Shown here: in pieces, positions 6,613 to 64,000 of the stretch | Layout: each line of letters starts with the position of its first letter | Numbering within the stretch: the first letter of the stretch is position 1 | Assembly (NCBI GenBank): GCA_038869515.1 | Contig: JAWCQZ010000002.1 | Location: 235,837 to 299,836 of the forward strand | Length of the DNA stretch: 64,000 bases | Source of the DNA: JAWCQZ01 sp038869515 [NCBI: Halobacteria archaeon] | GTDB lineage: Archaea; Halobacteriota; Syntropharchaeia; JACQPP01 | Direction of reading: 5' to 3' | Program-made: the position numbers and the translations under genes | Notes under the pieces: model-generated | Seen by the model: the letters and a program-made list of their open reading frames with translations, nothing else | What the model was told of the DNA's origin: nothing | Databases searched by the model: none

Positions 6613-6653
6613 GAGAGGGGGAGGGGGGGCCTCCGGCCCCCCCTCCCCCTCTC
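6613..6653. terminator. 19-bp perfect GC hairpin
   Basis: Left arm 6613-6631 (GAGAGGGGGAGGGGGGGCC), a 3-nt TCC loop, then an exact complement at 6635-6653. It begins 2 bp after the upstream stop codon and precedes the promoter of the KaiC-like gene. It could end transcription or insulate the two genes. No T-tract follows. Confidence 0.55.
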
Positions 6654-8166: not shown

Positions 8167-8327
8167 CCGGAAAGAGTGATTGACGATGGCGTTTCCATCC
8201 GCCCCCTCGGACCGACCCTCGCGTTTCGATATATGACGACGGGGCCGGTCCTCGCTCCCACCCGCGCCCCCCGCCGTCCTCCCCCCCGACCGATGGCCCT
8301 CCTGGAAGTTTTTCTATCGCCGCGAGA

Positions 8328-20159: not shown

Positions 20160-20636
20160 ATGCCCAAGAAATCCCCCCCCAAGCCCGTCCGTTCCACTCG
20201 GGCCGCGACCCCCGCGTTCCGAGATGAAGCGGGGTCGGATCGCGGGCCTCGTCCCATCCGCGTCATGCTCGCCAAGCCCGGCCTCGACGGCCACGACCGG
20301 GGGGTGAAGGTGGTCGCCCGGGCCCTCCGGGACGCCGGCATGGAGGTCATCTACACCGGCCTCCACCAGACCCCCGAGCAGGTGGTCGAGGCGGCGGTCC
20401 AGGAGGACGTGGACGCCATCGGCCTCTCCATCCTCTCCGGGGCCCACATGGCCCTCTTCCCGCGCATCGTCGAGTTGCTGAAGAAGAGCAAACTCAACGT
20501 CCCCCTCTTCGCGGGGGGAATCATCCCGGAGCAGGACGTCCCGGCGCTGAGGAAGATGGGCATCGCGGCGGTCTTCGGGCCGGGGACGAGCACGGAGACG
20601 ATAGTCAAGACGATTCGGGAGAAGGCGGGGAAGTAG
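20160..20636 (+). CDS. Methylmalonyl-CoA mutase, B12-binding small subunit
   Basis: A 158-residue cobalamin-binding protein with the base-off motif [11 protein letters not shown], then GLSILSGAH and [11 protein letters not shown] 20160 follows a GGAAGG purine stretch; ATG 20142 is an alternative. The first 35 residues are a poorly conserved extension. Part of it ([19 protein letters not shown]) is encoded by a degenerate palindrome at 20196-20255 that resembles the palindromes in the island at 25722-25770 and 26784-26832, which suggests an in-frame insertion. The core domain looks intact. Confidence 0.92.
20196..20255. repeat. Degenerate palindromic element inside the mutase small-subunit gene
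   Basis: It shares CGACCCCCGCGTT, the right arm GGGCCTCG and the overall order with the perfect palindromes at 25722-25770 and 26784-26832. Left arm GGGCCGCGACCCCCGC pairs with a right arm GCGGGGTCG...CGCGGGCC with one bulge. It is read in frame in the host gene. Confidence 0.55.
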
Positions 20637-20711
20637 GCGGCCGGGAACACTTTCACCGCGCTCGGGCAGGGGTCAAAACATGGGGGAGGGCCTCCGGTCG
20701 GAATGAGAAAA

Positions 20712-20798
20712 GCCGGGACGCATAGCGCGGCCCATGCAGAGGCCCCGTCAAACCTCTGCCCCGCAAAGGGCTCCCGGGTTCGAATCCCGGCTCCGGCC
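20712..20798 (+). tRNA. tRNA-like sequence, probably a degenerate type II tRNA
   Basis: A T-arm (CCGGG-TTCGAAT-CCCGG, 20775-20790) is perfect. Its 3' neighbour CTCCGGC pairs with GCCGGGA (20712-20718) except for an A-C mismatch at the inner pair. A D-arm (GCAT/ATGC, loop with GG), a long variable arm (GCCC/GGGC) and an 87-nt length fit a type II (Leu/Ser) tRNA. Position 8 is C instead of U, and the anticodon stem AGAGG/CCTCT encloses a 10-nt loop, so no anticodon can be assigned. It may be a pseudo-tRNA left by integration at the island border. Confidence 0.4.
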
Positions 20799-20959
20799 AT
20801 CCCGGCCGGAGATCCGAGGGGGCCGGGAGTTAATTTCCTGCCCTGATGGCCGCGGAAGCGAATCGGGAGACCCCGCCCGCCGCCCACCTGGCGGTCTCGG
20901 GGACCGGGCCGCCACCACCGGAAACCGTTTACCTGTTCGGACTTTTGGAGAGTCCGGGC

Positions 20960-23900
20960 ATGGTGACGAAGGAGCAGGCCAGGGAGGCGATTGGGAAACT
21001 GGTCCAGGACTACCTCGTCCAGGAGGGCTCGGTCAAGTCCCCAGGCTACAAGGAGGAGTGGGCGAAAGAGAACTTCATCGGGCCCCTGTTCCGGGCGTTG
21101 GGGTGGGATGTCGGCAACAAGGAGGGGAAGCCGTTCCAGGACCAGGAGGTGCAGCCGCAGGCGAGGGGGACGAAGGGCACGCCCGACTATGCTTTCAAAA
21201 TCGGTCGCACGACGAAATTTCTTCTGGAGGCCAAGAAGCCCTCGGAGTCACTCGCGAACCACGTCCTGCAGGCGAAGCAGTATGCCTGGAACAGCGGCGA
21301 GACCCCATTCGCGGTCCTGACCAATTTCGAGGAACTCCTCGTCTACCGGGTGCTCCGGAGGCCGACCCGGGACTTCAGCGAGGGCCGCATCGAGCGCTTC
21401 TTCCACACAGACTACGTCCCGCGCTTCGACGAGCTCTGGGCCCTCCTGTCCAGGGAAGCCGTCGAACAGGGTTCCCTCGACGCGGTCCTCCGAAAGAGAC
21501 CGGAGCCCAAGGAGCCGGTCAGCGACGCCTTCCTGAAGGACCTGGAGGGGTGGCGCATCGAACTCGCGAAGGACCTCTACAAGCGCAACCCCAAAATCGA
21601 CGCCAGACTCATGACGGAAGTGGTCCAGCGGATGCTGGACCGGCTGGTCTTCATCCGCATCGCGGAGGACCGGGGAATCCTCGAAGCGAGGAGCCTTGAA
21701 AAAATCGCGGACCTCTACCGGAGCAAGCCGGGCACGCACCCCGGGCCCCTGAAGTCGCTCTTCAAGGAGGTCAACGAGAAACTGAACGGGGACATCTTCA
21801 AGCCCCACGCCATCGACGAGCCCGAATACCGGTTCGACCCCACCCTCCTGGTCAAAATCATCGCCAGCCTCTACGACAACCACTACCGGTTCGACGTCAT
21901 CAAGGTCGAGCTGCTCGGCACCATCTACGAGCGCTACCTCGGGAGCGTCATCCGCCTCACCGAGAAGCGGGTGAAGGTCGAGGAGAAGCCCGAGGTCCGG
22001 AAGGCGGGGGGCGTCTTCTACACGCCGAAGTATATCGTGGACTACATCGTGGAAAACACGGTCGGGAAACTCATCGCGGGCAAGAGCCCCGCCGAAATCG
22101 AAAAAATCCGCATCCTCGACCCCGCCTGCGGCTCGGGGTCGTTCCTGCTCGGCGCCTACCAGAAACTGATTGACCACCACATCCAGTGGTATGCCGACCA
22201 CCGGGAGGAGGCCGCGGGCCGCGTCGTTTACGACAGCGAGGGGGGCATTCGCCTCTCCCTCACGGAGAAGGCCCGCATCCTCAAGAACAACATCCACGGA
22301 GTGGATATCGACCCGCAGGCGGTCGAAATCACCATGATGAGCCTCTACGTCAAGGCCCTGGAGGGGGAGCGGGTGGTCCCGCAGGGCCGCGACCTGCTGC
22401 CCCGCCTCTCGAAGAACATCATCTGCGGCAACAGCCTCATCGGGACCGACGTGGAGGAGGTCCTCGGGCGCAAACTTACCGAGGAGGAGGCGAGGCGCAT
22501 CAACGCCTTCGACTGGAAGGTGGGGTTCCCGGACATCTTCGGGCAGGGCGGGTTCGATGCGGTGGTTGGGAACCCGCCCTACATCCGCATCCAGACGATG
22601 CAGGAGTGGGCGCCCGCCGAGGTCGAATACATCAAGGAGAAATACCAGAGCGCCAAGTCCGGAAACATTGACATCTACCTCCCATTTGTCGAGAAGGGAG
22701 TTGGCCTCTTGAAGCCGACCGGGAAGTTCGGGTTCATCCTGCCCCACAAGTTCTTCCAGGCCAAGTACGGCGAGAACCTGCGCCGCATGATTTCCGAGAA
22801 GCGGATGCTGGAGCACGTTGTCAACTTCCGCGACCAGCAGGTGTTCGAGGGGGCCAGCACGTACACCTGCCTCATGTTCCTGACGCCGGGCGGTGCGGAG
22901 AGGATGCGGTATGCTGAGGTGCGGCAGTTGGTGGAACCGGAGAAGCAGTTGGAGTTCCTCATGGGCCGAGAGGAGTATTCAGACGAGGCGATGGTTGTGG
23001 GCGTTGTAGAACCGCCTTCTGGGGAAGAGGAGGTGTGGAACTTTTCGATAGGAAATCGCGTGCGGGAGCTCTACGAACGGGTCAAGAAGAAAAATCCCTT
23101 ACTTCGAGATGTCGCTGATAGAATCTTTCAAGGCTTGGTGACGGGTGCCGATAAGGTTTTCATCTTGGAATTGTGCGGGGAACTTTCACTGGAGAATAAA
23201 CGCACAAGAGTATTCTCAGAGGAGTTGAATGACGAGTTAAATTTGGAAACCGAACTTCTGCGTCCTCTCCTCAAAGGATCAGTGAGTATCCGACGGTATA
23301 GTGCCGAGGGTATAAATCGTTGTATTCTATTCCCGTACCGTATTGTCAACGGCGAAGCCGAGTTGATTTCGCCAAAAGAATTTGAGACTCGTTATCCAAA
23401 ATCGTGGGAGTATCTGAACAAGTGCAAAAAGACCCTCCAGGGACGAGAAAGGGGAAAATGGCACGTTGCAAATTGGTATGCGTTTGGACGAAATCAAAAT
23501 CTGAACATGATGGCAATCCCAAAAATTCTTACCCCTTCAATCGCCAACAAGGCGTCGTTCACTCTCGATTCCTCAGGCGAGTACTATTTCGTGGGTAGCG
23601 GGGGCGGAGGAGGCGGCGGTTATGGCATTACGTTGAGTGATAAGAACTGGCCACTTCAATATCTGGTCGCGCTCTTGAATAGCAAACTTCTGGATACCTT
23701 CTTGAAGCAAGTCAGTACTCCATTTCGAGGCGGCTTTTTCGCTTACAATCGACAATACATCGAACTTCTCCCAATCCGCCCCATCTCCCCCTCTAACCCC
23801 GGCGACAAAAAAGCCCACGACGACCTAGTGCGGCTCGTGGACCGCATGCTGGAGTTGCACAAGCGGCGCGCCCCGCTCCCCGAGTCGGCGGAGCGGGAGC

Positions 23901-24007
23901 GCCTCACGCGCGAGATTGACGCGGTGGACCGGCGGATTGACGATATCGTCTACGGGCTCTACGGCATCACGGAGGAGGAGCGGAAGATTATTGAGGGCCG
24001 GGGGTGA
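20960..24007 (+). CDS. Type IIG restriction-modification protein (nuclease, methyltransferase, specificity region)
   Basis: A 1015-residue Eco57I-like fusion. A PD-(D/E)XK nuclease lies at the N-terminus (GTPDYAF near residue 74, LLEAKK near 90). The adenine methyltransferase has LDPACGSGSFLLGAY near residue 387 and NPPY near 538. A target-recognition region follows (about residues 660-940), then a conserved helical end with DKKAHDDLVRLVDRM and YGITEEERKII. The DNA for the recognition region (about 22900-23790) is clearly AT-richer than the rest. I chose ATG 20960; ATG 20846 would add 38 unconserved residues. The conserved 3' end recurs at 25598 and 26685. Confidence 0.9.
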   Translation: MVTKEQAREAIGKLVQDYLVQEGSVKSPGYKEEWAKENFIGPLFRALGWDVGNKEGKPFQDQEVQPQARGTKGTPDYAFKIGRTTKFLLEAKKPSESLANHVLQAKQYAWNSGETPFAVLTNFEELLVYRVLRRPTRDFSEGRIERFFHTDYVPRFDELWALLSREAVEQGSLDAVLRKRPEPKEPVSDAFLKDLEGWRIELAKDLYKRNPKIDARLMTEVVQRMLDRLVFIRIAEDRGILEARSLEKIADLYRSKPGTHPGPLKSLFKEVNEKLNGDIFKPHAIDEPEYRFDPTLLVKIIASLYDNHYRFDVIKVELLGTIYERYLGSVIRLTEKRVKVEEKPEVRKAGGVFYTPKYIVDYIVENTVGKLIAGKSPAEIEKIRILDPACGSGSFLLGAYQKLIDHHIQWYADHREEAAGRVVYDSEGGIRLSLTEKARILKNNIHGVDIDPQAVEITMMSLYVKALEGERVVPQGRDLLPRLSKNIICGNSLIGTDVEEVLGRKLTEEEARRINAFDWKVGFPDIFGQGGFDAVVGNPPYIRIQTMQEWAPAEVEYIKEKYQSAKSGNIDIYLPFVEKGVGLLKPTGKFGFILPHKFFQAKYGENLRRMISEKRMLEHVVNFRDQQVFEGASTYTCLMFLTPGGAERMRYAEVRQLVEPEKQLEFLMGREEYSDEAMVVGVVEPPSGEEEVWNFSIGNRVRELYERVKKKNPLLRDVADRIFQGLVTGADKVFILELCGELSLENKRTRVFSEELNDELNLETELLRPLLKGSVSIRRYSAEGINRCILFPYRIVNGEAELISPKEFETRYPKSWEYLNKCKKTLQGRERGKWHVANWYAFGRNQNLNMMAIPKILTPSIANKASFTLDSSGEYYFVGSGGGGGGGYGITLSDKNWPLQYLVALLNSKLLDTFLKQVSTPFRGGFFAYNRQYIELLPIRPISPSNPGDKKAHDDLVRLVDRMLELHKRRAPLPESAERERLTREIDAVDRRIDDIVYGLYGITEEERKIIEGRG

Positions 24008-24022
24008 GGAGGTAAGTCGAGG

Positions 24023-24724
24023 ATGGAGACGTTGGCGAAGGTGAAACCCTCTGCGGCGACTCCCGAGGAACTTCTGGGCCCGCTGAACGACGTAGAGCGG
24101 AAGTTCGCCCCGTCAAAACTGTATGTGGCGGGCGACGTCGGGATTCTGCGCGCCGCGCCCCGGGCCGCCATCATCGGCACCCGCAAAGCCTCTCCCGGCG
24201 CCCTCCAGGCCGCGGGCGACCTTGCGAAAGCCCTCGCGAAAAACGGCGTGGTGATAGTCAGCGGGCTGGCGGAAGGAATCGACACCGCGGCCCACAAAGC
24301 GGCCATCGAAGCGGGAGGTCGCACGATTGCGGTCCTGGGAACCCCCCTGGACAGGGTCTATCCCGCGCGCAATTTCGAACTCCAGCAACTCATCATGCGG
24401 GAGCATCTGGCGATGACCCAATTCCCGACCGGCCACCCGGTCCAGCGGAGAAACTTCCCGCTCCGGAACCGGACCATGGCCCTCATCGCCAACGCCTCAA
24501 TCATCGTGGAGGCCGGGAACACGAGCGGCTCCCTCCATCAGGGATGGGAGGCCCTCCGCCTCGGCAGGCCGCTCTTCATCTGGAAGTCCCTTGCGGAAGA
24601 CGCCTCGCTGACATGGACCCGGGAAATGCGGAGATACGGGGCCATGGTGCTCTCGGACCCCGGAGAGGTCATCGAAGTCCTGCCCGCCCCGAATGCGGTC
24701 ATCCATGTGAATGCCCTTCCCTGA
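24023..24724 (+). CDS. DprA/Smf-like nucleotide-binding protein
   Basis: A 233-residue protein with the DprA Rossmann fold: AAIIGTRKASPGALQAAGDL, then IVSGLAEGIDTAAHKAAIEAGG, then LGTPLDRVYPARN. It lacks the DprA winged-helix C-terminus. The next gene, 2 bp downstream, encodes a phosphoribosyltransferase. A DprA-like antitoxin beside a phosphoribosyltransferase is the PsyrTA (RqlHI) arrangement known from bacteria, so a defence or toxin-antitoxin role is likely. It starts 15 bp after the RM gene, after a GGAGG-containing stretch. Confidence 0.85.
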   Translation: METLAKVKPSAATPEELLGPLNDVERKFAPSKLYVAGDVGILRAAPRAAIIGTRKASPGALQAAGDLAKALAKNGVVIVSGLAEGIDTAAHKAAIEAGGRTIAVLGTPLDRVYPARNFELQQLIMREHLAMTQFPTGHPVQRRNFPLRNRTMALIANASIIVEAGNTSGSLHQGWEALRLGRPLFIWKSLAEDASLTWTREMRRYGAMVLSDPGEVIEVLPAPNAVIHVNALP

Positions 24725-24726
24725 GG

Positions 24727-25428
24727 ATGGTTCGGTTTCGGGCGCCACAATGCTTATCGGTGATTGAATACGGGGCGTTGCTCTCCTACTCGACCCGGGG
24801 GGAAGGTGAAGAAGCGAGACAATCTCAAGAAGCGATGAAGTACCTCAAAGGCGATAGAGTCGTGCGCGTCCAAGAGAGCCCGTCGCGTCCCAACACCCCA
24901 CCCATTTCCATGTGCCAGTGGATCGCCCAATACATTCGACAGCATCAATCTACTTTGCCATTTGCCGGCCTCTTGACGCCCGCCGCCACGCTCGTTCCCG
25001 CGCCGAAGAGCTCCTTGATGAAGCCGGGGTCCCTGTGGGTCCCCCAGCGGCTCGCCGCGGCATTGGTCAACGCAGGCCTTGGAAAAGTGGTCCTATCCTG
25101 CCTCGAACGGGCTACTCCTGTCGAGAAGGCCGCGCTCAGCCCTCCCGAGAAGCGCCCGACGGCCCAAAAACACTTCGAGACCCTGCGCGTAGTGCCCGGC
25201 TTGGAGGCGACATCCGAGATTGTGGCGGTTGATGACGTTGTGACCACCGGCGCCATGCTTCTGGGGTCCGCAAGCCTGTTGTCGAGGGCTTTTCCCAACT
25301 CCCGCATTCGCGGCTTTGCGGCGATGCGGGCGATGACCGACCCCGGCCGGTTCGAAGATATCATCGCCCCCTGTGCCGGGACGATTACATTCCTCCCGGC
25401 GACAGGCAGAACTATACGTTCCCCATAG
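24727..25428 (+). CDS. Phosphoribosyltransferase-like protein paired with DprA
   Basis: A 233-residue protein. The PRPP-binding motif reads IVAVDDVVTTGAMLLG near residue 165, as in type I phosphoribosyltransferases. The first 60 residues are less typical. In PsyrTA-type toxins this domain follows a RecQ-like helicase; no helicase is present here. The start lies 2 bp after the DprA gene, so the two are translated together. GC content is a little lower than in the chromosomal genes around it. A toxin role is inferred from the pairing. Confidence 0.7.
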   Translation: MVRFRAPQCLSVIEYGALLSYSTRGEGEEARQSQEAMKYLKGDRVVRVQESPSRPNTPPISMCQWIAQYIRQHQSTLPFAGLLTPAATLVPAPKSSLMKPGSLWVPQRLAAALVNAGLGKVVLSCLERATPVEKAALSPPEKRPTAQKHFETLRVVPGLEATSEIVAVDDVVTTGAMLLGSASLLSRAFPNSRIRGFAAMRAMTDPGRFEDIIAPCAGTITFLPATGRTIRSP

Positions 25429-25501
25429 GAGTCTATCGAAAATGTTCGCCATCGACCCCTTCCCCAACGTCCCGGCGGAACGAGAGAGTTCCCGGGAGGA
25501 C

Positions 25502-25562
25502 CGGCGCGGGCCTCCGATATTGCCACGCGTCCCGGAGGGACGCGAGATAGAAGCCCGCGCCG
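25502..25562. repeat. Nested palindrome (outer CGGCGCGGGC, inner CGCGTCCC)
   Basis: Outer arms CGGCGCGGGC (25502-25511) and GCCCGCGCCG (25553-25562); inner arms CGCGTCCC (25526-25533) and GGGACGCG (25537-25544). Both pairs are perfect. It lies in an open frame upstream of RM copy 2. Confidence 0.7.
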
Positions 25563-25653
25563 ACGAAGCGAGAGAGTTTCCGAGTGGCCCGGGACTTCCC
25601 GACGACAAAAAAGCCCACGACGACCTAGTGCGGCTCGTGGAGCGTCGCCGCGT

Positions 25654-25689
25654 TGCGAAGCGAGGCGGCGAGGGCCAGCGAAGCTGGCC
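25654..25689. repeat. Double hairpin inserted in RM copy 2
   Basis: CGCCGC...GGCGGCG followed by the perfect GGCCAGC-GAA-GCTGGCC (25673-25689). The intact RM gene has no such sequence between its GTGCGGCTCGTGG and GCATGCTGGAG segments. The insertion keeps the reading frame. Confidence 0.65.
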
Positions 25690-25721
25690 CGGCATGCTGG
25701 AGTTGCACAAGCGGCGCTCTC

Positions 25722-25770
25722 GGCCCCCGACCCCCGCGTTGCGAAACGCAAACGGGGCGGGTCGGGGGCC
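25722..25770. repeat. Perfect palindromic element in RM copy 2
   Basis: Arms GGCCCCCGACCC (25722-25733) and GGGTCGGGGGCC (25759-25770) are exact complements. An inner GCGTT...AACGC stem lies in the loop. The same element occurs in copy 3 (26784-26832) and, degenerate, at 20196-20255. Confidence 0.8.
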
Positions 25771-25923
25771 TCGGCCCCTCCCCGGGTCGGCGGAGCGGGA
25801 GCGCGTCACGCGCGAGATTGACGCGGTGGACCGGCAGATTGACGAAATCGTCTACGGGCTCTACGGCATCACGGAGGAGGAAAGGAAGATAATCGAGTCC
25901 GGCGGAGGTAGGGGTTGAGTGCG

Positions 25924-26283
25924 ATGTCCCCCTCTGAATCCTCCCGGTCCGGCTCCCCCGAGCCGTGGCGGGTCGCCGTGGCCGAGTTCCAGCGGGAGGT
26001 CCGCGCCCTCTACGGCCCCCGGCTGGTCCGGGTCATCCTGTATGGGTCGCGGGCCAGGGGCGACGCGGAGGAGGGGTCGGACATTGACCTGATGGTGGTT
26101 CTGAAGGACGCGGTCAATGTCTGGAGCGAGTTGGACCGGATGAACCCGATTTCCAGCCGTCTCTCCCTGGAGCACAATGTGGTGATTACGACCATTCCCA
26201 TCGAGGAGAGGGAGTACCAAGAGAGGCGCTCTCCTCTCTTGCTGAACGTCCGGCGCGAGGGGGTCCCGGTCGATGCGCTCTGA
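25924..26283 (+). CDS. MNT-type nucleotidyltransferase (antitoxin-like)
   Basis: A 119-residue minimal nucleotidyltransferase. ILYGSRARGDAEEGSDIDLMVVL carries the GSxxxG...DxD signature that binds NTP and metal. It overlaps the HEPN gene by 11 bp, the usual MNT-HEPN pair. In MntA-HepT systems the transferase adds AMP to the HEPN toxin and silences it. TTG 25915 is an alternative start. It lies 5 bp after RM copy 2. Confidence 0.88.
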   Translation: MSPSESSRSGSPEPWRVAVAEFQREVRALYGPRLVRVILYGSRARGDAEEGSDIDLMVVLKDAVNVWSELDRMNPISSRLSLEHNVVITTIPIEEREYQERRSPLLLNVRREGVPVDAL

Positions 26284-26653
26284 CATCGAGGAACTTGTGA
26301 CGAAGGGCCGAAGGAGCTTGGATGCGGCGCGCCTGATGCTTGAGAACGGCCACTACGACTTCTGCGCGTCGCGGGCGTACTACGCAATGTTTTACCTTGC
26401 GGAGGCGGCCCTGCTGACCCTGGACCTGTCCTACTCCAAGCACAGCGCCGTCATCTCCGCATTTGGAGAGCGCTTCATCAAGCCCGGCGTCTTCCCGCGG
26501 AATCTCCACGAATCTCTCCGGAAGGCATTCGAGAAACGGGGCATCGGCGACTACGAGTCCACGCCTTTTTCCAAAGAAGACGCCAGTCTCCTCCTTCGCT
26601 ATGCCCGGGAGTTCGTGGATTCGGTGACGGCCTACCTGGCGAAGCACGGTTGA
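26273..26653 (+). CDS. HEPN-domain protein (toxin-like)
   Basis: A 126-residue four-helix HEPN protein with the family's FCASRAYYAMFYLAEAALL helix near residue 35. HEPN proteins of this kind are often RNases. The classical RxxxxH motif of HepT cannot be assigned with certainty, so the catalytic state is unclear. It overlaps the MNT gene and is followed by RM copy 3. Confidence 0.85.
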   Translation: MRSDIEELVTKGRRSLDAARLMLENGHYDFCASRAYYAMFYLAEAALLTLDLSYSKHSAVISAFGERFIKPGVFPRNLHESLRKAFEKRGIGDYESTPFSKEDASLLLRYAREFVDSVTAYLAKHG

Positions 26654-26684
26654 TGACCGTCCAAAGCGTGATGCGCGATGCAAT

Positions 26685-26917
26685 CCGCCCCATATCCCCC
26701 TCCAACCCCTCCGACAAAAAAGCCCACGCCGAACTGGTGCGGCTCGTGGCCCGGCATGCTGGAGTTGCGCAGGCGGCGCTCTCGGCCCCCGACCCCCGCG
26801 TTGCGAAACGCAAACGGGGCGGGTCGGGGGCCTCGGCCCCTCCCCGGGTCGGCGGAGCGGGAGCGCGTCACGCGCGAGATTGACGCGGTGGACCGGCGGA
26901 TTGACGAAATCGTCTAC
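26685..26917 (+). pseudogene. Partial copy of the RM gene 3' end (copy 3)
   Basis: The DNA again matches the RM 3' end, starting earlier than copy 2 (IRPISPSNPSDKKAHAELVRLV) and stopping at DEIVY, before the YGITEEER end. It carries the same perfect palindrome as copy 2 (26784-26832). At the place where copy 2 holds the double hairpin, copy 3 has GTGGCCCGGCATG against GTGGACCGCATG in the intact gene: one extra base that breaks the frame. This looks like the scar of a lost element. Confidence 0.75.
26784..26832. repeat. Perfect palindromic element in RM copy 3
   Basis: Same 49-bp element as at 25722-25770, with arms GGCCCCCGACCC and GGGTCGGGGGCC. Confidence 0.8.
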
Positions 26918-27136: not shown

Positions 27137-28108
27137 ATGACCGTCAACAAAACCAAATCCGACCTCCCCCCCCTCCTCTCCGCCCTCCGCCGCGGCGACA
27201 AGCGCGCCGTCGCCCGGCTCATCACCCTCATCGAGAACGACCACGACGCGGCCCGGGAAATTGTCAAGGCCATCTACCCGCTCACCGGCAAGGCCCACAT
27301 CGTCGGCGTCACCGGCCCCCCGGGGGCGGGCAAGTCCACCCTCATCGACGTCCTGGTCAAGCACTACCGGAAGGCGGGAAAATCGGTGGCGGTGGTCGCG
27401 GTGGACGTCTCATCCCCCTTCACCGGCGGCGCGTTTCTGGGCGACCGTCTCCGCATGGCCTCGGCCCAAGACCCCGAGGTCTTCGTGCGCTCCATGGGGA
27501 GCCGGGGCGCGGTCGGGGGTCTCGCCCGGGCGACCCGGGACGCGATTCGGGTGCTCGACGCGGCGGGCCGGGACGTGATTTTTGTCGAGACCGTCGGCAC
27601 GGGCCAGGACGAAGTGGACATCATGAACGCCGCCCACACCTGCCTCCTGGTCGCGGTGCCGGGCCTGGGCGACGAAATCCAGGCCAGCAAGGCCGGCTCG
27701 ATGGAAATTGCCGACCTCTTTGTGGTGAACAAGTCCGACCGGGAGGGGGCGGACAAGGCGGCCCGGGAACTCCAGGAGATGGTCCATCTCGGGCCGAAGC
27801 GCGACTGGACGCCTCCGGTCCTCAAGGCGGCGGCGTTGAAGGGGGAGGGCGTCGCGGAGGTGGCCTCTGCCCTGGAGGAGCACCGGAGGTTCCTCGGGTC
27901 GCGCATGGGCGAGTGGCGGCGGCGGACGGCGGAGGCGGAGGTGCGGGACCTGGTCCGGGGCCTGGTGGAGGCGCGGCTGGCGGACCTGAAGGGGAGCCCG
28001 GAGACGCGCAAGGTGGTGGAGCTGGTTGCGGCGAAGAAGGCGGACCCCTACACCGCTGCGGAAGAGACCCTCCGCAAAATCAACTCCGGGAAGCCTAAGC
28101 GGGCTTGA
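27137..28108 (+). CDS. meaB: Methylmalonyl-CoA mutase-associated GTPase MeaB (ArgK family)
   Basis: A 323-residue G3E GTPase. Walker A is GVTGPPGAGKSTLIDVL near residue 57; the family pattern AVDVSSPFTGGAFLGDRLRM follows; then ETVGTGQDEVDI, and the base motif VVNKSD. It loads and protects adenosylcobalamin in the mutase. It would be expected next to the mutase genes; here the 6.5-kb island separates them. ATG 27137 starts the conserved region. Confidence 0.93.
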   Translation: MTVNKTKSDLPPLLSALRRGDKRAVARLITLIENDHDAAREIVKAIYPLTGKAHIVGVTGPPGAGKSTLIDVLVKHYRKAGKSVAVVAVDVSSPFTGGAFLGDRLRMASAQDPEVFVRSMGSRGAVGGLARATRDAIRVLDAAGRDVIFVETVGTGQDEVDIMNAAHTCLLVAVPGLGDEIQASKAGSMEIADLFVVNKSDREGADKAARELQEMVHLGPKRDWTPPVLKAAALKGEGVAEVASALEEHRRFLGSRMGEWRRRTAEAEVRDLVRGLVEARLADLKGSPETRKVVELVAAKKADPYTAAEETLRKINSGKPKRA

Positions 28109-33277: not shown

Positions 33278-33838
33278 TCAGAGGGCCCCGATGGATTCCA
33301 ACTGGTGCCGGAGGACCTGCATCGCCCTCTGGCAGTCCGGGGAGTTCTTGCTGCCGGTGATGATGACCTTCCCGGAGCCGAAAATCAGCAGCACGGTCTT
33401 GGGGTCGGAGATGCGGTAGACGAGGCCCGGGAACATCTCCGGCTCGTATTCGACGTTCTCGAGCCCCAGGTTGACCGCGATGGAGTCGAGGTCCACGAAC
33501 TCCGTGTGGAGGTCGGCGCTCGCGACGATGTTCTGGACCACGAACTCCGGCCTCTGGGTGATTTCGATGCCCAGGTTCTTCAGGTCGGCCATCAGCTGCT
33601 CCACCCCCGCGTTCACGTCCTCGATGGAGCGAAAACCGGTCCCAACGGCCTTGCCGGTGCTGAAGAGGAGGAACGCCCCCTTGGGGTTCTCGACCCGGTA
33701 GATGAGGCCGGGGAACTTCTTCTTCTTGTACTCGGCCCGCGGCAACTTGCTCTCCAGCCACGGCAGGTCGAACTTGTCGGCGATGACCGCGTTGGCCACG
33801 ACGTTCTCGATTTTGATGTCCTCCTTGGAGGTCTCCAT
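33278..33838 (-). CDS. tbp: TATA-binding protein
   Basis: A 186-residue general transcription factor with two direct repeats. The first contains YRVENPKGAFLLFSTGKAVGTG and the second YRISDPKTVLLIFGSGKVIITG, the two DNA-contacting halves of the saddle. ATG 33838 is preceded at about 30 bp by a TATA-like box; a TTG at 33850 is less likely. It is a reliable archaeal marker. Confidence 0.96.
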   Translation of the reverse strand: METSKEDIKIENVVANAVIADKFDLPWLESKLPRAEYKKKKFPGLIYRVENPKGAFLLFSTGKAVGTGFRSIEDVNAGVEQLMADLKNLGIEITQRPEFVVQNIVASADLHTEFVDLDSIAVNLGLENVEYEPEMFPGLVYRISDPKTVLLIFGSGKVIITGSKNSPDCQRAMQVLRHQLESIGAL

Positions 33839-33861
33839 GGGGCGTTTCAAGGGACGCCCCT

Positions 33862-42509: not shown

Positions 42510-43457
42510 ATGCGCAGAGACGCGGGCTACGCCACCCTCCTCGACGCCCTGATTTTCCTCGTCCTCGTCTCCGTCGCCGCCGCCCTGGTCTTCACCACCC
42601 TCTCCCGGAGCTCCGGCCTCCAGGCCGCCCGGGAGCTGCGGAGCCAGAGGCTCGACTCGGCGGCCATCGACGCGCTGCTGGCGGTCCGGCCCGAGGGGCG
42701 GGATATCGGGATGAGAATCGGGGAGGGGCTCTTGGCCCTCTATGTGGATGAGAAAGGCCGGGACCCCGGGCTCGAAGGGGTCGTGAACGACACCCTGGCG
42801 CGCCTCCTCGGGCCCCGCCACCGGTTCAACCTCACGGCCGCGTGGAGGCCCGTGCCGTGGGCGGGGCCGGAGTGGCGGTTTGCGGTCGGGTCTCCTGCCC
42901 CGGAGAGGGCGACGAAGGTGGAGAGGGTGATGACGCTGCCGGTGGCGGACGGGTTCCGGGAGTTGCTGGATGTGCGACTGGAAAAAATCAACGTCGTGGA
43001 GGAAGCAGCCGAGGTGTTGAACCGCTCCGTGGAGGCGGTCCGGCTGAGCCTCGTCCGTGTCAAAATCGCATATTGTGAGCTGTGCGATGGCTACAACCGG
43101 AAGGCCGAGGCCCTGGAGCGGCGCCTGGAGGAGCGGGTGAAGAGCTCCGACCGCGTCTGGCTGGAGCCGGTCCGCGCCGATGTGTTTGACGTGGTGGTGA
43201 ACGACCAGTGGCGCTTCTCCGAAGCGGTGAAGGGGTGCTCTCCGGAGCAGGGGTGCTTCCCCGAGCCGGATGACATCAACCTCCAGCCCGGGACCTGGGA
43301 GGTCCGGCCCGACGTTCAGGCCCTGGCGGCGGAGGCGTTGAGAGAGAGGGTCCGGGGGCTGGGCCTGGAGAGCGCGAGGCGCGAGGCCCGGAGGTGGCTT
43401 ATGGAGGAGCAACTCCACCCCGACCGGGCCCGGGTGGTCCTGGCCATCTGGCAATAA
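42510..43457 (+). CDS. Pilin-like or surface-anchored protein, one N-terminal membrane helix
   Basis: A 315-residue protein. The N-terminus MRRDAGYATLLDALIFLVLVS looks like a class III (pilin) signal peptide with an uncut hydrophobic core, as in many archaeal pilin-like proteins. The rest is hydrophilic, with one CxxC and another cysteine pair (CSPEQGC) that could form disulfides. The DNA after its stop is a 27-bp palindrome. Confidence 0.62.
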   Translation: MRRDAGYATLLDALIFLVLVSVAAALVFTTLSRSSGLQAARELRSQRLDSAAIDALLAVRPEGRDIGMRIGEGLLALYVDEKGRDPGLEGVVNDTLARLLGPRHRFNLTAAWRPVPWAGPEWRFAVGSPAPERATKVERVMTLPVADGFRELLDVRLEKINVVEEAAEVLNRSVEAVRLSLVRVKIAYCELCDGYNRKAEALERRLEERVKSSDRVWLEPVRADVFDVVVNDQWRFSEAVKGCSPEQGCFPEPDDINLQPGTWEVRPDVQALAAEALRERVRGLGLESARREARRWLMEEQLHPDRARVVLAIWQ

Positions 43458-43482
43458 GAATTTTCGCTGCGCGAAAATTCTT
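43456..43482. repeat. 27-bp perfect palindrome, copy A
   Basis: AAGAATTTTCGC, TGC loop, GCGAAAATTCTT. The identical sequence occurs at 51920-51946. Here it overlaps the last two bases of the stop codon of the upstream gene. Confidence 0.85.
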
Positions 43483-43655
43483 AGAGAGGGGCCCGTCGTG
43501 GATACCGGGCTCGCTCTCGGGCGAGGAGGAGCCAGAGGGCGGCGGCGATGGCGAGACGCGGGCCTCTCATGTCCCCGGGCGAACTTCCGGCACCCGGAAA
43601 AACTTTGGGACAGCCGGGGGGCAGGGTTATCCGGCGCGACAGCCCCACTCCCGGG

Positions 43656-51919: not shown

Positions 51920-51946
51920 AAGAATTTTCGCTGCGCGAAAATTCTT
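51920..51946. repeat. 27-bp perfect palindrome, copy B
   Basis: Identical to 43456-43482. It ends directly against GTG 51919 of the membrane-protein gene on the minus strand. Confidence 0.85.
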
Positions 51947-58755: not shown

Positions 58756-60131
58756 CCGCCACCGTCGTCGAACGGTTGTCGGAGCTCTGCCGCGCCCGCA
58801 AGCCCGACCAGTGGGAGGCCTACGCCTCGCGCAACCGCGTCCTCACCGTCCGGTGGGCGACGAGCCGCATCCTGGAGGCGAAGGAGTCGCTCATCTCGGG
58901 CCACTCCGTCCGCATCGTCAAGAAAAAATCGGTCGGCTTCTCGGCCGCTGACGGGGCCTCGGACCCCGCAGCGACCGTCGAGGCGGCGTCGGACGCGGCC
59001 GCCCGGAAGCCCCCCGACCCCCGCTTCCGCTCGCTGCCCTCCGGCGGCAAGGCCCGGCCCCTCTCGCGGGACCCCCGCCTCGCCCACCTCTCGCTCGAAG
59101 AGGCGGTGCGACTGGCGGAAGCGACCCTTGAGGCCGCCCTCGGCGGCGGAGCGGATCTCGACGTCGCGGGCTCTCTCAACGCGGTCTCCGAGGAGGTGTG
59201 GATCCGCAACTCCGAGGGCGTGGACGCCCACGAGGCCGGCGCCTTCCTCGTCGAGAGCCTCACCGTCGAGAAGGGAGACGCCCTCTCCGCCCTCGGGACC
59301 GCCGGGGCCCGCCGCCTCTCCGACTTCGACCCGGTCCAGCCCGCGCGGGACGCCTTGGAGACCGTCGGCCGCAGCCGGAGGGTCTCCCGGGCCCCGCCCG
59401 GCAGGGCCACCGTCCTCTTCACCCCCGACGCCATGGCCGAAATCCTCGAGCAGGAGCTGTCCGCTGGCGTGAACGGCCAAGCCTACGAATACGGCATCTC
59501 GTTTTTCATCGGCAAATTGGGGAAGCGGGTCGCGGAGCCGGGATTCACCCTCACCGACGACAACCGCCACCCCGGGGGGGTCGCATCGAAGGCGGTGGAC
59601 GACGAGGGGGTCCCGGCGAAGCCCCTGCGGTTGATTGACCGCGGGCGGCTCACGGGACTCGTGCTCGACTCCTACTACAGGGAGTGTTTGCGCCGGAAGG
59701 GGCTGAAGAGCCTGGCCGGGGGGAGAGGTTTTCGCTTCGGCACCGTCCCGGGCCGGAGCCACGCGGCGACGCCCTCGCCCTCCGCGACCAACATGGTCGT
59801 GTCGCCGGGCGATTGGAGCGCGGAGGAGTTGGTGGAGGAGACGCGCCGCGGTCTCCTGGTGGGCCGCCTCTGGTACACCTACCTTGTGAACCCCGCCGCC
59901 GGGGATTTCGCCACCACGAATCGCGGGGCGACTTTTCTCATCAAGGACGGCGAAATCGGCCCCGCCGTCAAGCCGAGCACCTTCCGCATCCAGGACAACA
60001 TCCTCCGGTGGCTCGGAGCTCTCCGGGGGCTCTCCAGGGAGCGGAAGCAGTCCTCAATCTGGGCGGGGGTGTCGTCCTGCATCTCGCCGTGGGCGAGGGT
60101 GGAGGGGGTGCCGGTTACGAGGTACAAATAA
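58752..60131 (+). CDS. tldE: TldD/PmbA-family protein, TldE-like subunit
   Basis: A 459-residue non-catalytic partner of TldD. It shows the family's N-terminal domain and the segment EGVDAHEAGAFLVESLT, with C-terminal PSPSATNMVVSPGD. The HExxxH zinc site is absent, as expected for TldE. ATG 58752 overlaps the mini-frame stop. Its last 17 bp overlap the minus-strand surface-protein fragment. Confidence 0.88.
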   Translation: MTATVVERLSELCRARKPDQWEAYASRNRVLTVRWATSRILEAKESLISGHSVRIVKKKSVGFSAADGASDPAATVEAASDAAARKPPDPRFRSLPSGGKARPLSRDPRLAHLSLEEAVRLAEATLEAALGGGADLDVAGSLNAVSEEVWIRNSEGVDAHEAGAFLVESLTVEKGDALSALGTAGARRLSDFDPVQPARDALETVGRSRRVSRAPPGRATVLFTPDAMAEILEQELSAGVNGQAYEYGISFFIGKLGKRVAEPGFTLTDDNRHPGGVASKAVDDEGVPAKPLRLIDRGRLTGLVLDSYYRECLRRKGLKSLAGGRGFRFGTVPGRSHAATPSPSATNMVVSPGDWSAEELVEETRRGLLVGRLWYTYLVNPAAGDFATTNRGATFLIKDGEIGPAVKPSTFRIQDNILRWLGALRGLSRERKQSSIWAGVSSCISPWARVEGVPVTRYK

Positions 60132-60700
60132 CGAACGTAAGCGTTTCGTTGATTACCGTCACGTTGTACCCCCGCCGCCGCGCCTCTTTCGCGAACCCGG
60201 TGTAGTCGGCGCACTCGGGGCGCTGGCAGGGGGCGGAGGGGATTCCAATCAGCCCGCCGTGGCCGATGTCGATGGTGAGGGTCGAGATGATGGGGGGCAG
60301 GATTTCCTCGGGGCCTTGCGGGGGCAACTTCTCGACGAGGGCTTCGATTTCCGAAGCCAAGGCCCTCAACTCTTCCAACGCCGCTGGGTCGCCATGGATG
60401 GCCCGGAGCGAGACCGCCTCGGCCCTCGCCGCCGCCTTGTAGATGTCGGCGAAGGCGAAGTGGCCGCCCGTCCGCAACAGCAGTTCCCGGGAGTCCTCTT
60501 TGATTGTCCGCGCCAGCGCATGGGCCACGAACGGGTCGGGGTTGGTGACGTTCTTGAGGTCGCGAATCATCTGCTGCAAGGTCTCGTTCTCCTCGGCCGT
60601 CCAGTGGGTCTTGGAGTCGCGGAGGGTGAAGATGCCGTTTTCAAGGGCCGCGTGGGTCGCGTTGATGGAGACATTGGGATGAAAAGATTCAAGGAGTTAT
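60115..60700 (-). pseudogene. N-terminal fragment of a surface-protein gene (array copy 1)
   Basis: The frame 60579-60115 reads from MQQMIRDLKN to FVICTS and is closely similar to the N-terminal part of the 535-residue protein at 60925 (shared TGGHFAFADIYKAAARAEAVSL and LPPQGPEEILPPIISTLTI). Similarity-like sequence continues upstream to about 60700 (NATHAALENGIFTLRDSK), but no start is visible and a stop precedes it. The rest of the protein is missing; the frame ends in the tldE 3' end. Confidence 0.65.
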
Positions 60701-60928: not shown

Positions 60929-62532
60929 TTTCCACACTTTGCGAATATAATGGCTAGTCCAGTCCCGGATGTGATTGCGGAAGCAATAATCGTTCCAAAT
61001 CCAAAACTTGCTAAGCTACCACCTGCTATGAACCCTCCTGGATTTGCCGCTAAAGCCGCTGGTATCGCAATCAATAAGCCCAGGCCAAGTGTCCCAAAAC
61101 CGATGAGTCCACCAATGCCACCTTGAAATGCCCTGTCAACTCCACCCTGGCAGGTGATAGGTTCAGAGGTCAGAGCGCTAAGGAAATCGAAGCCAATTCT
61201 ACTAGGAGTGACGCCGACGTCCTTCAGAACAGATTCGGGAGATGAGCCGTGGGCCTGTAGAGTATATACGCCCTCCAACAAAGTTAGTGTGCAAAACCCA
61301 GCATCGTTTGTTATGCACGAAAAAGTTTCGTTTGTAGATTTGTTTTTAGCGTCCACATGGAGTCCGCTTAGTGGGGAACCGCGAGCGTCAGCCACGGACA
61401 CAACTTCGACTCCAAATCCCTCTGGAATCGCGGGAACCCGCACCGTTCCAACAGTTGAGGCCCCGGGACGTAAGAATTCCAAAATGTTCAGCGCGAATTG
61501 TCTGTTGCTCCCCGCATCCAAATCTGGAGCTCCATCGTCGTCCCGGTCCCCGTCATCGAAGAGATGGAGGTCCGACACGAAAAACGCACTTCCGTTGCCG
61601 AGTCCCGAGGCAGCAGCGAGAACAGGGCCGGGCGGGTCCGTCCCGTTGAACAAACGGACTCTTGTGCTACTCCCGTTCCCTGTCACGATGGGCTCCGCGC
61701 CGAACAGGGTGATGAGGTCGGAGCCGTTGTAGGACTTGACTTCGGAGACGCCCTCGGTGGTCCGATGGGGAGTGAGATTGGTATAGGAGACGGTCGTGGA
61801 GAACGAAACGCCGTTGAACTGCTCGATTTGGCCAGCCCGGTAGATGACGCCGAACGGCGACGAGAGGTTGTTCACGGGCAAATCCTGGCTGACGTTCCAC
61901 AGCGCCTTGAAGTCGGGGTCGAAGCCAATCACGAACAGACCCCCTCCGGCCTCGACATACTGCTGAATCGCGTTCAGTTCGTCTGACGAGAAGGGGGTCA
62001 CGGGCGGGGGCACCATGAAGACATCTGTGCTGTTGAGTTTATCAAAGGTGATGGTCCCGTTGATTACGGTCACGTTGTGTCCACGGCGGCGGGCCTCTTT
62101 CGCGAACCCGGTGTAATCCACGCACTCCGGCCTCTGGCAAGGCGCGGCGGGGACTCCAATCAGGCCGCCGTGGCCGATCTCTATCGTCAAGGTCGAAATG
62201 ATTGGCGGCAGAATCTCCTCCGGGCCTTGGGGCGGCAGTTTGGGTATCAACGACTCAATCTCGGAGGCCAGGGCCCTCAACTCCTCCAGGGCGGCCGGGT
62301 CCCCGTGGATGGCCTGGAGGGAGACCGCCTCCGCCCTCGCCGCAGCCTTGTAGATGTCGGCGAAGGCGAAGTGGCCGCCGGTCTTGAGGAGGAGGGCCTG
62401 GACGCTCTCCTTGAGGCCCCGGGCGATGGCGAGGGCGAACCGCCGACCATCCCCAGAATTGACATTCGGGGCACTGTTGCTGTTGAAAAGGGCCGGAGGA
62501 GTTCCACACGCAGCTATCTCACCACCCGTCAT
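60925..62532 (-). CDS. Modular surface-protein-like protein with Gly-rich membrane C-terminus (array copy 2)
   Basis: A 535-residue protein. N-terminal helices are shared with the fragment at 60115. Residues about 150-330 hold a GATase-like/DUF4350-type domain (EARRRGHNVTVINGTITF, QQYVEAGGGLFVIGFD, SAFFVSDLHLF). Then comes a beta-sandwich domain, and a Gly/Ala-rich C-terminal pair of membrane segments. Many N-x-S/T sequons suggest glycosylation. The visible N-terminus lacks a signal peptide. It overlaps a small membrane-protein gene at each end. Confidence 0.6.
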   Translation of the reverse strand: MTGGEIAACGTPPALFNSNSAPNVNSGDGRRFALAIARGLKESVQALLLKTGGHFAFADIYKAAARAEAVSLQAIHGDPAALEELRALASEIESLIPKLPPQGPEEILPPIISTLTIEIGHGGLIGVPAAPCQRPECVDYTGFAKEARRRGHNVTVINGTITFDKLNSTDVFMVPPPVTPFSSDELNAIQQYVEAGGGLFVIGFDPDFKALWNVSQDLPVNNLSSPFGVIYRAGQIEQFNGVSFSTTVSYTNLTPHRTTEGVSEVKSYNGSDLITLFGAEPIVTGNGSSTRVRLFNGTDPPGPVLAAASGLGNGSAFFVSDLHLFDDGDRDDDGAPDLDAGSNRQFALNILEFLRPGASTVGTVRVPAIPEGFGVEVVSVADARGSPLSGLHVDAKNKSTNETFSCITNDAGFCTLTLLEGVYTLQAHGSSPESVLKDVGVTPSRIGFDFLSALTSEPITCQGGVDRAFQGGIGGLIGFGTLGLGLLIAIPAALAANPGGFIAGGSLASFGFGTIIASAITSGTGLAIIFAKCGK

Positions 62533-62981: not shown

Positions 62982-63469
62982 TTACCACCCAGTTGCAACA
63001 ACTCAGTCAAACCAGCTGATAAGGTGACTCCTCCAAATCCAATTAAAAAGCCGCCAATACCCGCGGCGCCCCAAACGGCAACCGGTATGGTCGGCGCCGC
63101 TAGACCGCCGGTTGCCGCAGTCCCAAATCCGGTGGCTATCGCGGCACCCACTGGGAGTAAAATACCGCCGATTATCATCGTCAACCCACCGAAAATATTC
63201 GACCCAGCACTAAGGGCTCCGGCTATTAAACAGCGCGTTTGCTCTACCGAGAACGAAGATCGAGACTGAACGAAGCTCGTTTGGCCGTCGCTTGCCTGTG
63301 GGTCTATAAAAGACGTAAAAACGGACCCATCTTCAATCACACGCGACTCTATTGAATAGTTTCCAACAGGTACAAGGACGCGACAAAAACCAAGTTCGTT
63401 GGTCGTACATGTGAATTTTTCACTAGTAATCTTGTAAGAGTTTAGCCAACCGGTCTGCCCCGGGCGCAT
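62969..63469 (-). pseudogene. C-terminal fragment of a surface-protein gene (array copy 3)
   Basis: A 166-residue frame. From about residue 9 it resembles the last third of the 535-residue protein (FTCTTNELGFCRVLV against FSCITNDAGFCTLTL), including the Gly-rich membrane segments. The first residues come from the 3' end of the transposase, so the N-terminal two thirds are lost and the gene is truncated. Confidence 0.65.
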
Positions 63470-64000
63470 CGAGAGAGAGTCCGCTCCAGCAGTTTAATAA
63501 AGTTCCGGCCACTGCGTCGGCAGCTCTCCTTCACACTGACGAGGACCGTCGTGGTCTCCGCCCCCGCCTGCGACTTGCTCCCGTGGGTGTTGTTCCGGAC
63601 CACCACCATCGGGCGAATCTCCCGCTCCACGCCGTTGGAGTGCCAGGGCACCCCGGGATACCGCAGGAAGGTGAACATCTGGTGGCGGCACTTCCGGAGC
63701 CCTCCGGCCAGTTGGTCCGCGTGGGGGTCCCGATGCTCCCGGTCGATGAGCCGGTCGAGCCGCCTCTCGAACCGGTCGGCGCCCTGTCTCCGGCGCCTCG
63801 GCCCCTCCACGCTCTCGTGGAAGTCGATGGCGTCCCGCAGGATGCGCCGCAGTTTCTTGATGAACCGGATGAACTCGTGGCACGGACGCCCCGCCCGGGT
63901 GAACCTCGGGGGCTCGCTCCTCCGGAGGGGCCTCGGCTCCATCCCCTTCTCGACCTCGAACCGCTGAATCCTCCGGTTCACGTGGACGAGGCATTGCTGC
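63442..64000 (-). mobile_element. IS66-like transposase, cut by the window end
   Basis: The frame stays open from the window end to 63442. The C-terminal PWHSNGVEREIRPMVVVRNN resembles the NNxxER end of IS66-type DDE transposases, followed by the TTTVLVSVKESCRRSG helix. The start and N-terminal half are outside the window. The stop lies 27 bp inside the truncated surface-protein frame. No terminal inverted repeat could be identified. Confidence 0.7.

What the first reader, a model, noticed from the sequence alone, without database searches (positions are those of the whole stretch)
20196..26832. Palindromic elements carried in frame inside coding sequence
A 49-bp element (arms GGCCCCCGACCC) is identical in RM copies 2 and 3. 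A degenerate relative encodes part of the N-terminus of the mutase B12 subunit. Each is read without a stop and adds a Pro/Arg/Gly-rich linker of similar sequence ([32 protein letters not shown]). This resembles the Rickettsia palindromic elements, which insert into genes, but I know of no archaeal counterpart.
Basis: partly seen in the sequence, partly recalled or inferred. Interest (0 to 1): 0.85.

Follow-up and report, generated by a model that had tools for sequence, protein, structure and literature searches.

The report
Small palindromic insert in archaeal genes
A roughly 55-letter DNA palindrome occurs at three separate places in this stretch of archaeal DNA, one of them inside the start of a vitamin-B12 enzyme gene, where it adds about 19 amino acids without breaking the gene, much like small selfish inserts known from Rickettsia bacteria.

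Summary
A 55-nt palindrome is identical in RM-tail copies 2 and 3, and a relative lies in the 5' coding part of the mutase B12-subunit gene (E 8e-11; score 58 against a null maximum of 36). Corrections: copies 2 and 3 are one insertion, later duplicated (98% identical over 171 bp, flanks included), and both are 3' remnants of an RM gene, so only the mutase insert lies in an evidently intact gene. RM copy 1 is an empty site: net +54 nt. A start codon lies within 22 codons of the KPG motif in 92 of 95 parsed mutase homologues, against 38 here; 0 of 95 has the peptide. I found a third, intergenic copy at 8206-8255, supported by a sequence-plus-structure model (33.4 bits), not by sequence alone. 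All copies read CTCG-stem-loop-stem-CTCG. Best reading: a small non-autonomous palindromic element, working like intragenic REPs or RPEs but failing tests of both. The window's genome is not held, so copy number is unknown; searches elsewhere found no convincing copy.

The parts
20197..20251 (+). element copy in the mutase B12-subunit gene (mutB12); encodes residues 13-31
   Evidence: 80.6% identical over 67 nt to the RM element, E 8e-11; no canonical start codon between it and the conserved core except an ATG 3 codons before KPG
25719..25773 (+). element copy in RM-tail copy 2; arms 25722-25733 and 25759-25770
   Evidence: fold z -4.34
26781..26835 (+). element copy in RM-tail copy 3, identical to copy 2, same insertion event
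   Evidence: 98% identity of 171 bp including flanks
8206..8255 (+). third independent element copy (probable), intergenic between cobA and a VOC-fold gene; new here
   Evidence: R1 33.4 bits, E 3.5e-5 (same bits with default filters); background best 19.7 bits in 220 kb, none at E<=1 in 1.19 Mb; sequence-only score not above null
23844..23995 (+). empty site: 3' end of the intact RM gene; insertion point corresponds to 23869/23870
   Evidence: offset to copy 2 steps from 1848 to 1902
20160..20636 (+). mutB12, methylmalonyl-CoA mutase B12-binding subunit (host gene)
   Evidence: PF02310 3.2e-31, TIGR00640 3e-48
20846..24007 (+). intact Eco57I-type RM protein (copy 1)
   Evidence: PF07669 1e-45, TaqI_C, HSDR_N
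25572..25918 (+). RM-tail remnant, copy 2
26681..26917 (+). RM-tail remnant, copy 3; the element ends about 300 nt upstream of meaB; 1-nt shift before the element
25644..25691 (+). second insert, net 48 nt, two small hairpins, in RM-tail copy 2 only
   Evidence: offset 1800 to 1848; alignment; fold
27137..28108 (+). meaB GTPase gene downstream of copy 3
   Evidence: TIGR00750 8.6e-101

Best explanation
This is a small non-autonomous palindromic element of about 55 nt, built as CTCG-stem-loop (5' half CGCGTTNCGANA)-stem-CTCG. It occupies three independent places in this 64-kb archaeal stretch: between two genes (probable copy), in the 3' part of an RM gene that was later reduced to a tail and duplicated, and in the 5' coding part of mutB12. 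It survives in coding DNA where it keeps the frame, the frame used has no stop, and the site is a linker or a loose end. Shown: the repeated unit, its palindrome, the net +54-nt step against the empty RM copy, the reading frames. Inferred: that mutB12 and the intergenic site once lacked it, and that it moves. Likeliest way of moving (the weakest step, about 0.35 by itself): as a single-stranded hairpin taken in trans by a tyrosine (IS200/IS605-like) transposase, as discussed for REPs, since I see no target duplication.
For: The two strong copies share a unit that begins exactly at CTCG in unrelated genes. RM-mutase alignment score 58 against a null maximum of 36 in 60 simulations. Empty allele in the window, net 54 nt. 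Mutase: window start 38 codons before KPG, homologues at most 22 in 92 of 95 parsed loci, peptide in 0 of 95. AlphaFold model: pLDDT below 50 at residues 9-22 and 25-28, first strand from 34 (the 12 homologue rows start at about residue 28-33, so low confidence before that is partly lack of alignment). Third copy by model R1 with clean backgrounds. Three pairs change on both sides across three distinct copies. RM copy open in all six frames, the other two copies in five.
Against: Only three independent copies, one not significant by sequence alone. The pair-change result is weak: 37 of 500 shuffles do as well, on an alignment fitted to the structure, and 234 of 500 for the two-copy alignment. 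RM-mutase similarity runs about 11 nt past the right-hand CTCG (8 of 11 letters alike by my count), so that end is not sharp. No convincing copy elsewhere: 0 of 37 and 1 of 389 genomes by pattern, that one with 3 mismatches and about what chance gives by my own estimate; 0 of 250 and 0 of 292 by model at reduced sensitivity; none in viral contigs. No such transposase was among the ORFs that I scanned, only part of the window. Three of 95 homologues have longer N-termini: 26 and 34 codons, and one of doubtful parse. The RM difference could also be a loss from copy 1.
Confidence: 0.72

Rival explanations
1. A cis-acting regulatory hairpin (RNA or operator) of the B12/methylmalonyl-CoA genes: copies lie between cobA and a VOC-fold gene, in the 5' end of mutB12, and about 300 nt upstream of meaB.
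For: Positions and gene identities; all four copies lie on the strand of the genes around them.
Against: The copy by meaB sits in an RM-gene remnant and has an identical sister before a nucleotidyltransferase gene; the VOC protein matches no methylmalonyl-CoA epimerase model among the 25 NCBIfam rows shown (a capped list); no comparable element in 39 loci from archaeal phyla, 33 of them around mutase genes (best 19.7 bits); the mutase copy folds no better than shuffles.
Confidence: 0.12
2. Local duplication or gene conversion: a piece of the mutB12 5' end was copied into the RM gene, or the reverse, with no mobile element.
For: Only two strongly similar copies, 5.5 kb apart, and similarity that runs slightly past the palindrome on the right.
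Against: The shared segment is essentially the palindrome in both places, homologous mutases lack it, and a probable third copy lies 12 kb away.
Confidence: 0.08
3. GC-rich hairpin-forming sequence that arises repeatedly without common descent.
For: The 68%-GC window has about as many simple hairpins as simulated sequence (17 against a mean of 15.35 in 20 simulations); the 25440-25780 stretch holds several other hairpins (z -5.55).
Against: The RM-mutase similarity includes part of the loop and is far above null.
Confidence: 0.05

Closest known systems
Rickettsia palindromic elements (RPE)
   Same: Palindromic, hairpin-forming, translated in frame inside unrelated genes (passages of PMC2229807, PMC10969869, PMC3733652).
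   Different: Long RPEs are 105-146 bp (PMC2229807); the small RPE-4 and RPE-6 are counted as CGTC repeats (PMC3733652). This unit is 55 nt, archaeal and bounded by CTCG; no RPE sequence was compared.
Tagged REPs (GTAG / CGTC repeats), including intragenic ones
   Same: Small hairpins with a tetranucleotide at the foot; also found inside coding regions, where dimers or groups encode 20-30 residues (passages of PMC3733652).
   Different: REPs are given as 20-40 bp, tagged at one end, with loops of 2-20 (GTAG) or 4-5 (CGTC); here 55 nt, 25 nt between the outer arms, CTCG on both sides. In that paper the word archaea occurs only in the reference list. A 2025 survey reports archaeal REPs, predicted in intergenic regions (passages of PMC12306157).
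Prokaryotic MITEs (for example ERIC, Correia, RUP; archaeal MITEs)
   Same: Non-autonomous, inverted repeats, able to fuse in frame with genes (passages of PMC2229807 and PMC10969869).
   Different: The MITEs tabulated in PMC2229807 are mostly larger and several have target duplications; none is seen here. Archaeal MITEs are named in PMC10969869, but the passages that I saw tell of no in-frame archaeal case.

Membership tests
Rickettsia palindromic elements | palindromic, stable stem-loop | tested here: met
   RM copy z -4.34, intergenic copy z -2.07; the mutase copy is not above shuffles
Rickettsia palindromic elements | inserted in frame in conserved genes | tested here: inconclusive
   one conserved gene, mutB12, with the segment in frame, but no near relative with an empty allele; the RM tail is a remnant
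Rickettsia palindromic elements | length 105-146 bp (long RPEs) | tested here: not met
   55 nt; length from passages of PMC2229807. The small RPE-4/RPE-6 fall under the CGTC rows below
Rickettsia palindromic elements | sequence relationship to a known RPE family | not tested
   no RPE sequence was compared
REP (GTAG or CGTC tagged) | GTAG or CGTC at one end of the hairpin | tested here: not met
   CTCG on both sides in all four copies (left side; right side read)
REP (GTAG or CGTC tagged) | short palindrome, 20-40 bp | tested here: not met
   55 nt; 49 nt from outer end to outer end of the arms
REP (GTAG or CGTC tagged) | high copy number in the genome | not testable with these tools
   own genome not held; three independent places in 64 kb
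MITE | target-site duplication | tested here: not met
   the flanking CTCG is not at the empty RM site in that orientation; no other direct repeat seen there; only this one site could be examined
MITE | parental transposase with matching ends | not testable with these tools
   own genome not held

The most novel reading that the evidence does not exclude
An archaeal lineage carries a genome-wide family of 55-nt palindromes, bounded by CTCG and open in nearly all frames, that repeatedly inserts into protein genes and adds a Pro/Arg/Gly-rich linker: an archaeal, independently evolved counterpart of the Rickettsia palindromic elements.
Probability: 0.4. Interest if true: 0.72.

Novelty: new variant of a known kind. 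Interest (0 to 1): 0.5.

Why it matters
In the papers seen here, in-frame palindromic inserts are described from Rickettsia and other bacteria. A convergent archaeal case would show that small hairpin elements can reshape proteins in both domains, and a mutase with and without the segment would allow a direct test of whether such inserts are neutral. The CTCG-bounded model and the occupied/empty pair make a genome search simple once the genome is at hand.

Tried and rejected
Own-genome search: not held. Placing the lineage: a TBP gene and a translation-factor gene that I take for aIF5B (name recalled, not scanned against a family library) say archaeon. That protein is about equally far (best rows about 47-51% identity) from Thermoplasmatota (225 of 243 genomes match at E<=1e-50; 0 of 52 at 1e-163; 0 of 5 at 1e-160) and Thermoproteota (2 of 151 at 1e-158), so the phylum stays open and no near relative was found. 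mutB12 matched 99 of 389 genomes at E<=1e-45, up to 73% identity.

Element elsewhere: pattern 0 of 37 and 1 of 389 (3 mismatches, judged chance); models 0 of 250 and 0 of 292 (in 19 of the 20 genomes listed at most 18 candidates, out of up to 6,542, were scored, so a weak negative). Genomes recur between these sets. Viral contigs: 0 and 0; a shorter pattern hit 8 contigs, none of which matched R1 at E<=1; the RM protein found no relative there. Phages: no match to the RM-tail DNA. Plasmids: only the RM tail, in two haloarchaeal records; the protein of the copy-1 tail found nothing. Rfam: nothing at gathering score in the window; one hit far below its gathering score.

Rejected: the second insert (25644-25691) as a member of the same family; it shares CGCGTTGCGAA but scores only background with R1 (8.7 bits for part of it on the other strand). 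Alignment A2 was dropped because I judged it to misplace the 3' half of the intergenic copy; A3, fitted to the model, was used instead, so its pair counts lean to the structure. R2 was trained on the intergenic copy, so its 54.3 bits are not independent. Ten of 105 mutase loci could not be parsed and were left out of the start-codon count; two earlier listings were not used for counts. The peptide test looked only for TPA.R or RGPRP.

Full report
What is there. The window is 67.7% GC and archaeal: it carries a TATA-binding protein gene (33281-33850) and a translation-factor gene that I take for aIF5B (name recalled), with matches throughout two archaeal phyla. The finding lies in and after a mutA-mutB12 pair; meaB follows about 6.5 kb later, beyond an Eco57I-type RM gene, a DprA homologue, a nucleotidyltransferase/HEPN pair and two partial RM tails.

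The element. At 25719-25773 and 26781-26835 is a 55-nt unit with perfect 12-nt arms 25 nt apart; it folds well as RNA (z -4.34). A relative begins at 20197 in mutB12, 80.6% identical over 67 nt. Against simulated sequence the similarity is far outside chance (58 against a maximum of 36 in 60 simulations), and the best other place in the window scores 31-32. The relative keeps 10 of the 12 outer pairs but does not fold better than shuffles: a decayed or tamed copy.

A third place. A covariance model (R1) built from the two distinct copies found a further match at 8203-8256 (33.4 bits, E 3.5e-5; the next match that is not a known copy or its reverse strand has 14.9 bits; also found with default filters). 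Backgrounds were clean: best 19.7 bits in 220 kb of 39 loci from archaeal phyla, nothing at E<=1 in 1.19 Mb of 80 other loci. By sequence alone this copy is not above null (29-31 against null means of 29-30), so I call it probable. It is intergenic, between cobA and a VOC-fold gene, and its own stem GGACCG...CGGTCC is intact (z -2.07). Across the three distinct copies three pairs change on both sides; 37 of 500 shuffles do as well and the alignment was fitted to the structure, so this is weak support.

Ends. In all four copies the stem is bounded by CTCG on both sides (left side; right side read). CTCG is not at the empty RM site in that orientation, which suggests that it travels with the element. 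The RM-mutase similarity starts exactly at the left CTCG but runs about 11 nt past the right one (8 of 11 letters by my count), so the right end is less certain.

Occupied and empty. RM copy 1 is intact (1053 aa) and has no element. Between flanking blocks the offset to copy 2 steps from 1848 to 1902, net +54 nt or 18 codons; by eye this is 56 nt gained and 2 lost beside the junction. Copies 2 and 3 are 98% identical over 171 bp that include both flanks: one insertion, then duplication. Both are 3' remnants; copy 3 has a one-base shift before the element. Copy 2 also carries a separate net 48-nt hairpin insert that copies 1 and 3 lack, in a stretch rich in hairpins (z -5.55).

The mutase case. 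The conserved fold begins at about residue 34. The nearest canonical start before it is the ATG 38 codons before the K of KPG; the only later one is an ATG 3 codons before KPG, inside strand 1. So if the gene is translated with its first strand, the element is translated too, as residues 13-31. In 92 of 95 parsed homologues a start lies within 22 codons; two have unrelated extensions of 26 and 34 codons and one is of doubtful parse; none has the peptide (TPA.R or RGPRP). A Thermoplasmata N-terminus, MPRGSPKAPPIRVLIA in L027, lines up by eye with the window's MPKKSPPKP...PIRVMLA on either side of the segment. The AlphaFold model leaves the segment at low confidence, but the homologue rows do not reach that far, so this says little. 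That the ancestor lacked it remains an inference until a near relative is read.

Frames. The RM copy is open in all six frames, the mutase and intergenic copies in five. RM and mutase use the same frame; the intergenic copy is in the frame of the VOC gene downstream, but I see no start codon before it, so that may be chance.

Mechanism. I favour a non-autonomous hairpin element that is tolerated where it keeps the frame and the site is a linker. Movement by a tyrosine transposase acting on single strands is the likeliest route by analogy with REPs (passages of PMC3733652), but nothing here shows it. A regulatory hairpin of B12/methylmalonyl genes is the main rival because copies lie near such genes; the RM context, the lack of a comparable element in the other mutase loci examined and the VOC identity speak against it.

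Known kinds. Closest are RPEs and intragenic tagged REPs (passages of PMC3733652, PMC2229807, PMC10969869). The element fails the long-RPE length and the REP tag and length tests. A 2025 survey reports archaeal REPs predicted in intergenic regions (passages of PMC12306157). The listings of eight searches of open-access papers showed no archaeal in-frame palindromic insert; the listings were cut (15 of 775,162; 12 of 30; 10 of 53), one search was too broad to be useful, and subscription papers and preprints are not held.

Limits. The genome is not held, the phylum is unresolved, and the searches elsewhere were limited in reach and sensitivity. Copy number, mobility and expression are untested.

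Noticed in passing
window 25440-25700: Several GC-rich hairpins before RM-tail copy 2, two with GCGAAGC loops; fold z -5.55 over 25440-25780. Possibly a second family of small palindromes.
   Followed up: partly
window 43455-43483 and 51920-51946: Almost identical AT-rich palindrome (TAAGAATTTTCGC TGC GCGAAAATTCTTA), both outside the genes that I predicted, in a 68%-GC window; maybe an operator or terminator.
   Followed up: no
window about 20713-20800: Stretch that reads to my eye like the 3' half of a tRNA (GGGTTCGAATCCC) right after mutB12 and before the RM gene; neither ARAGORN nor the Rfam scan calls a tRNA there. May be an integration scar of the RM block.
   Followed up: no
window 20846-26653: mutB12 and meaB are separated by a defence-like block: RM gene, DprA homologue, nucleotidyltransferase (sub-cut-off MntA-like match) and HEPN gene.
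   Followed up: no
window 25837-25883: The RM tail is 87-89% identical over 46-47 nt to two haloarchaeal plasmids, one in an N-6 DNA methylase gene, hinting at exchange.
   Followed up: no
window 6613-6653: 19-bp perfect hairpin with a 3-nt loop between predicted genes.
   Followed up: no
window 60129-60525 and 62040-62436: Direct duplication of about 400 bp at 77-80% identity, near an IS66-type transposase fragment at 63445-63984.
   Followed up: no
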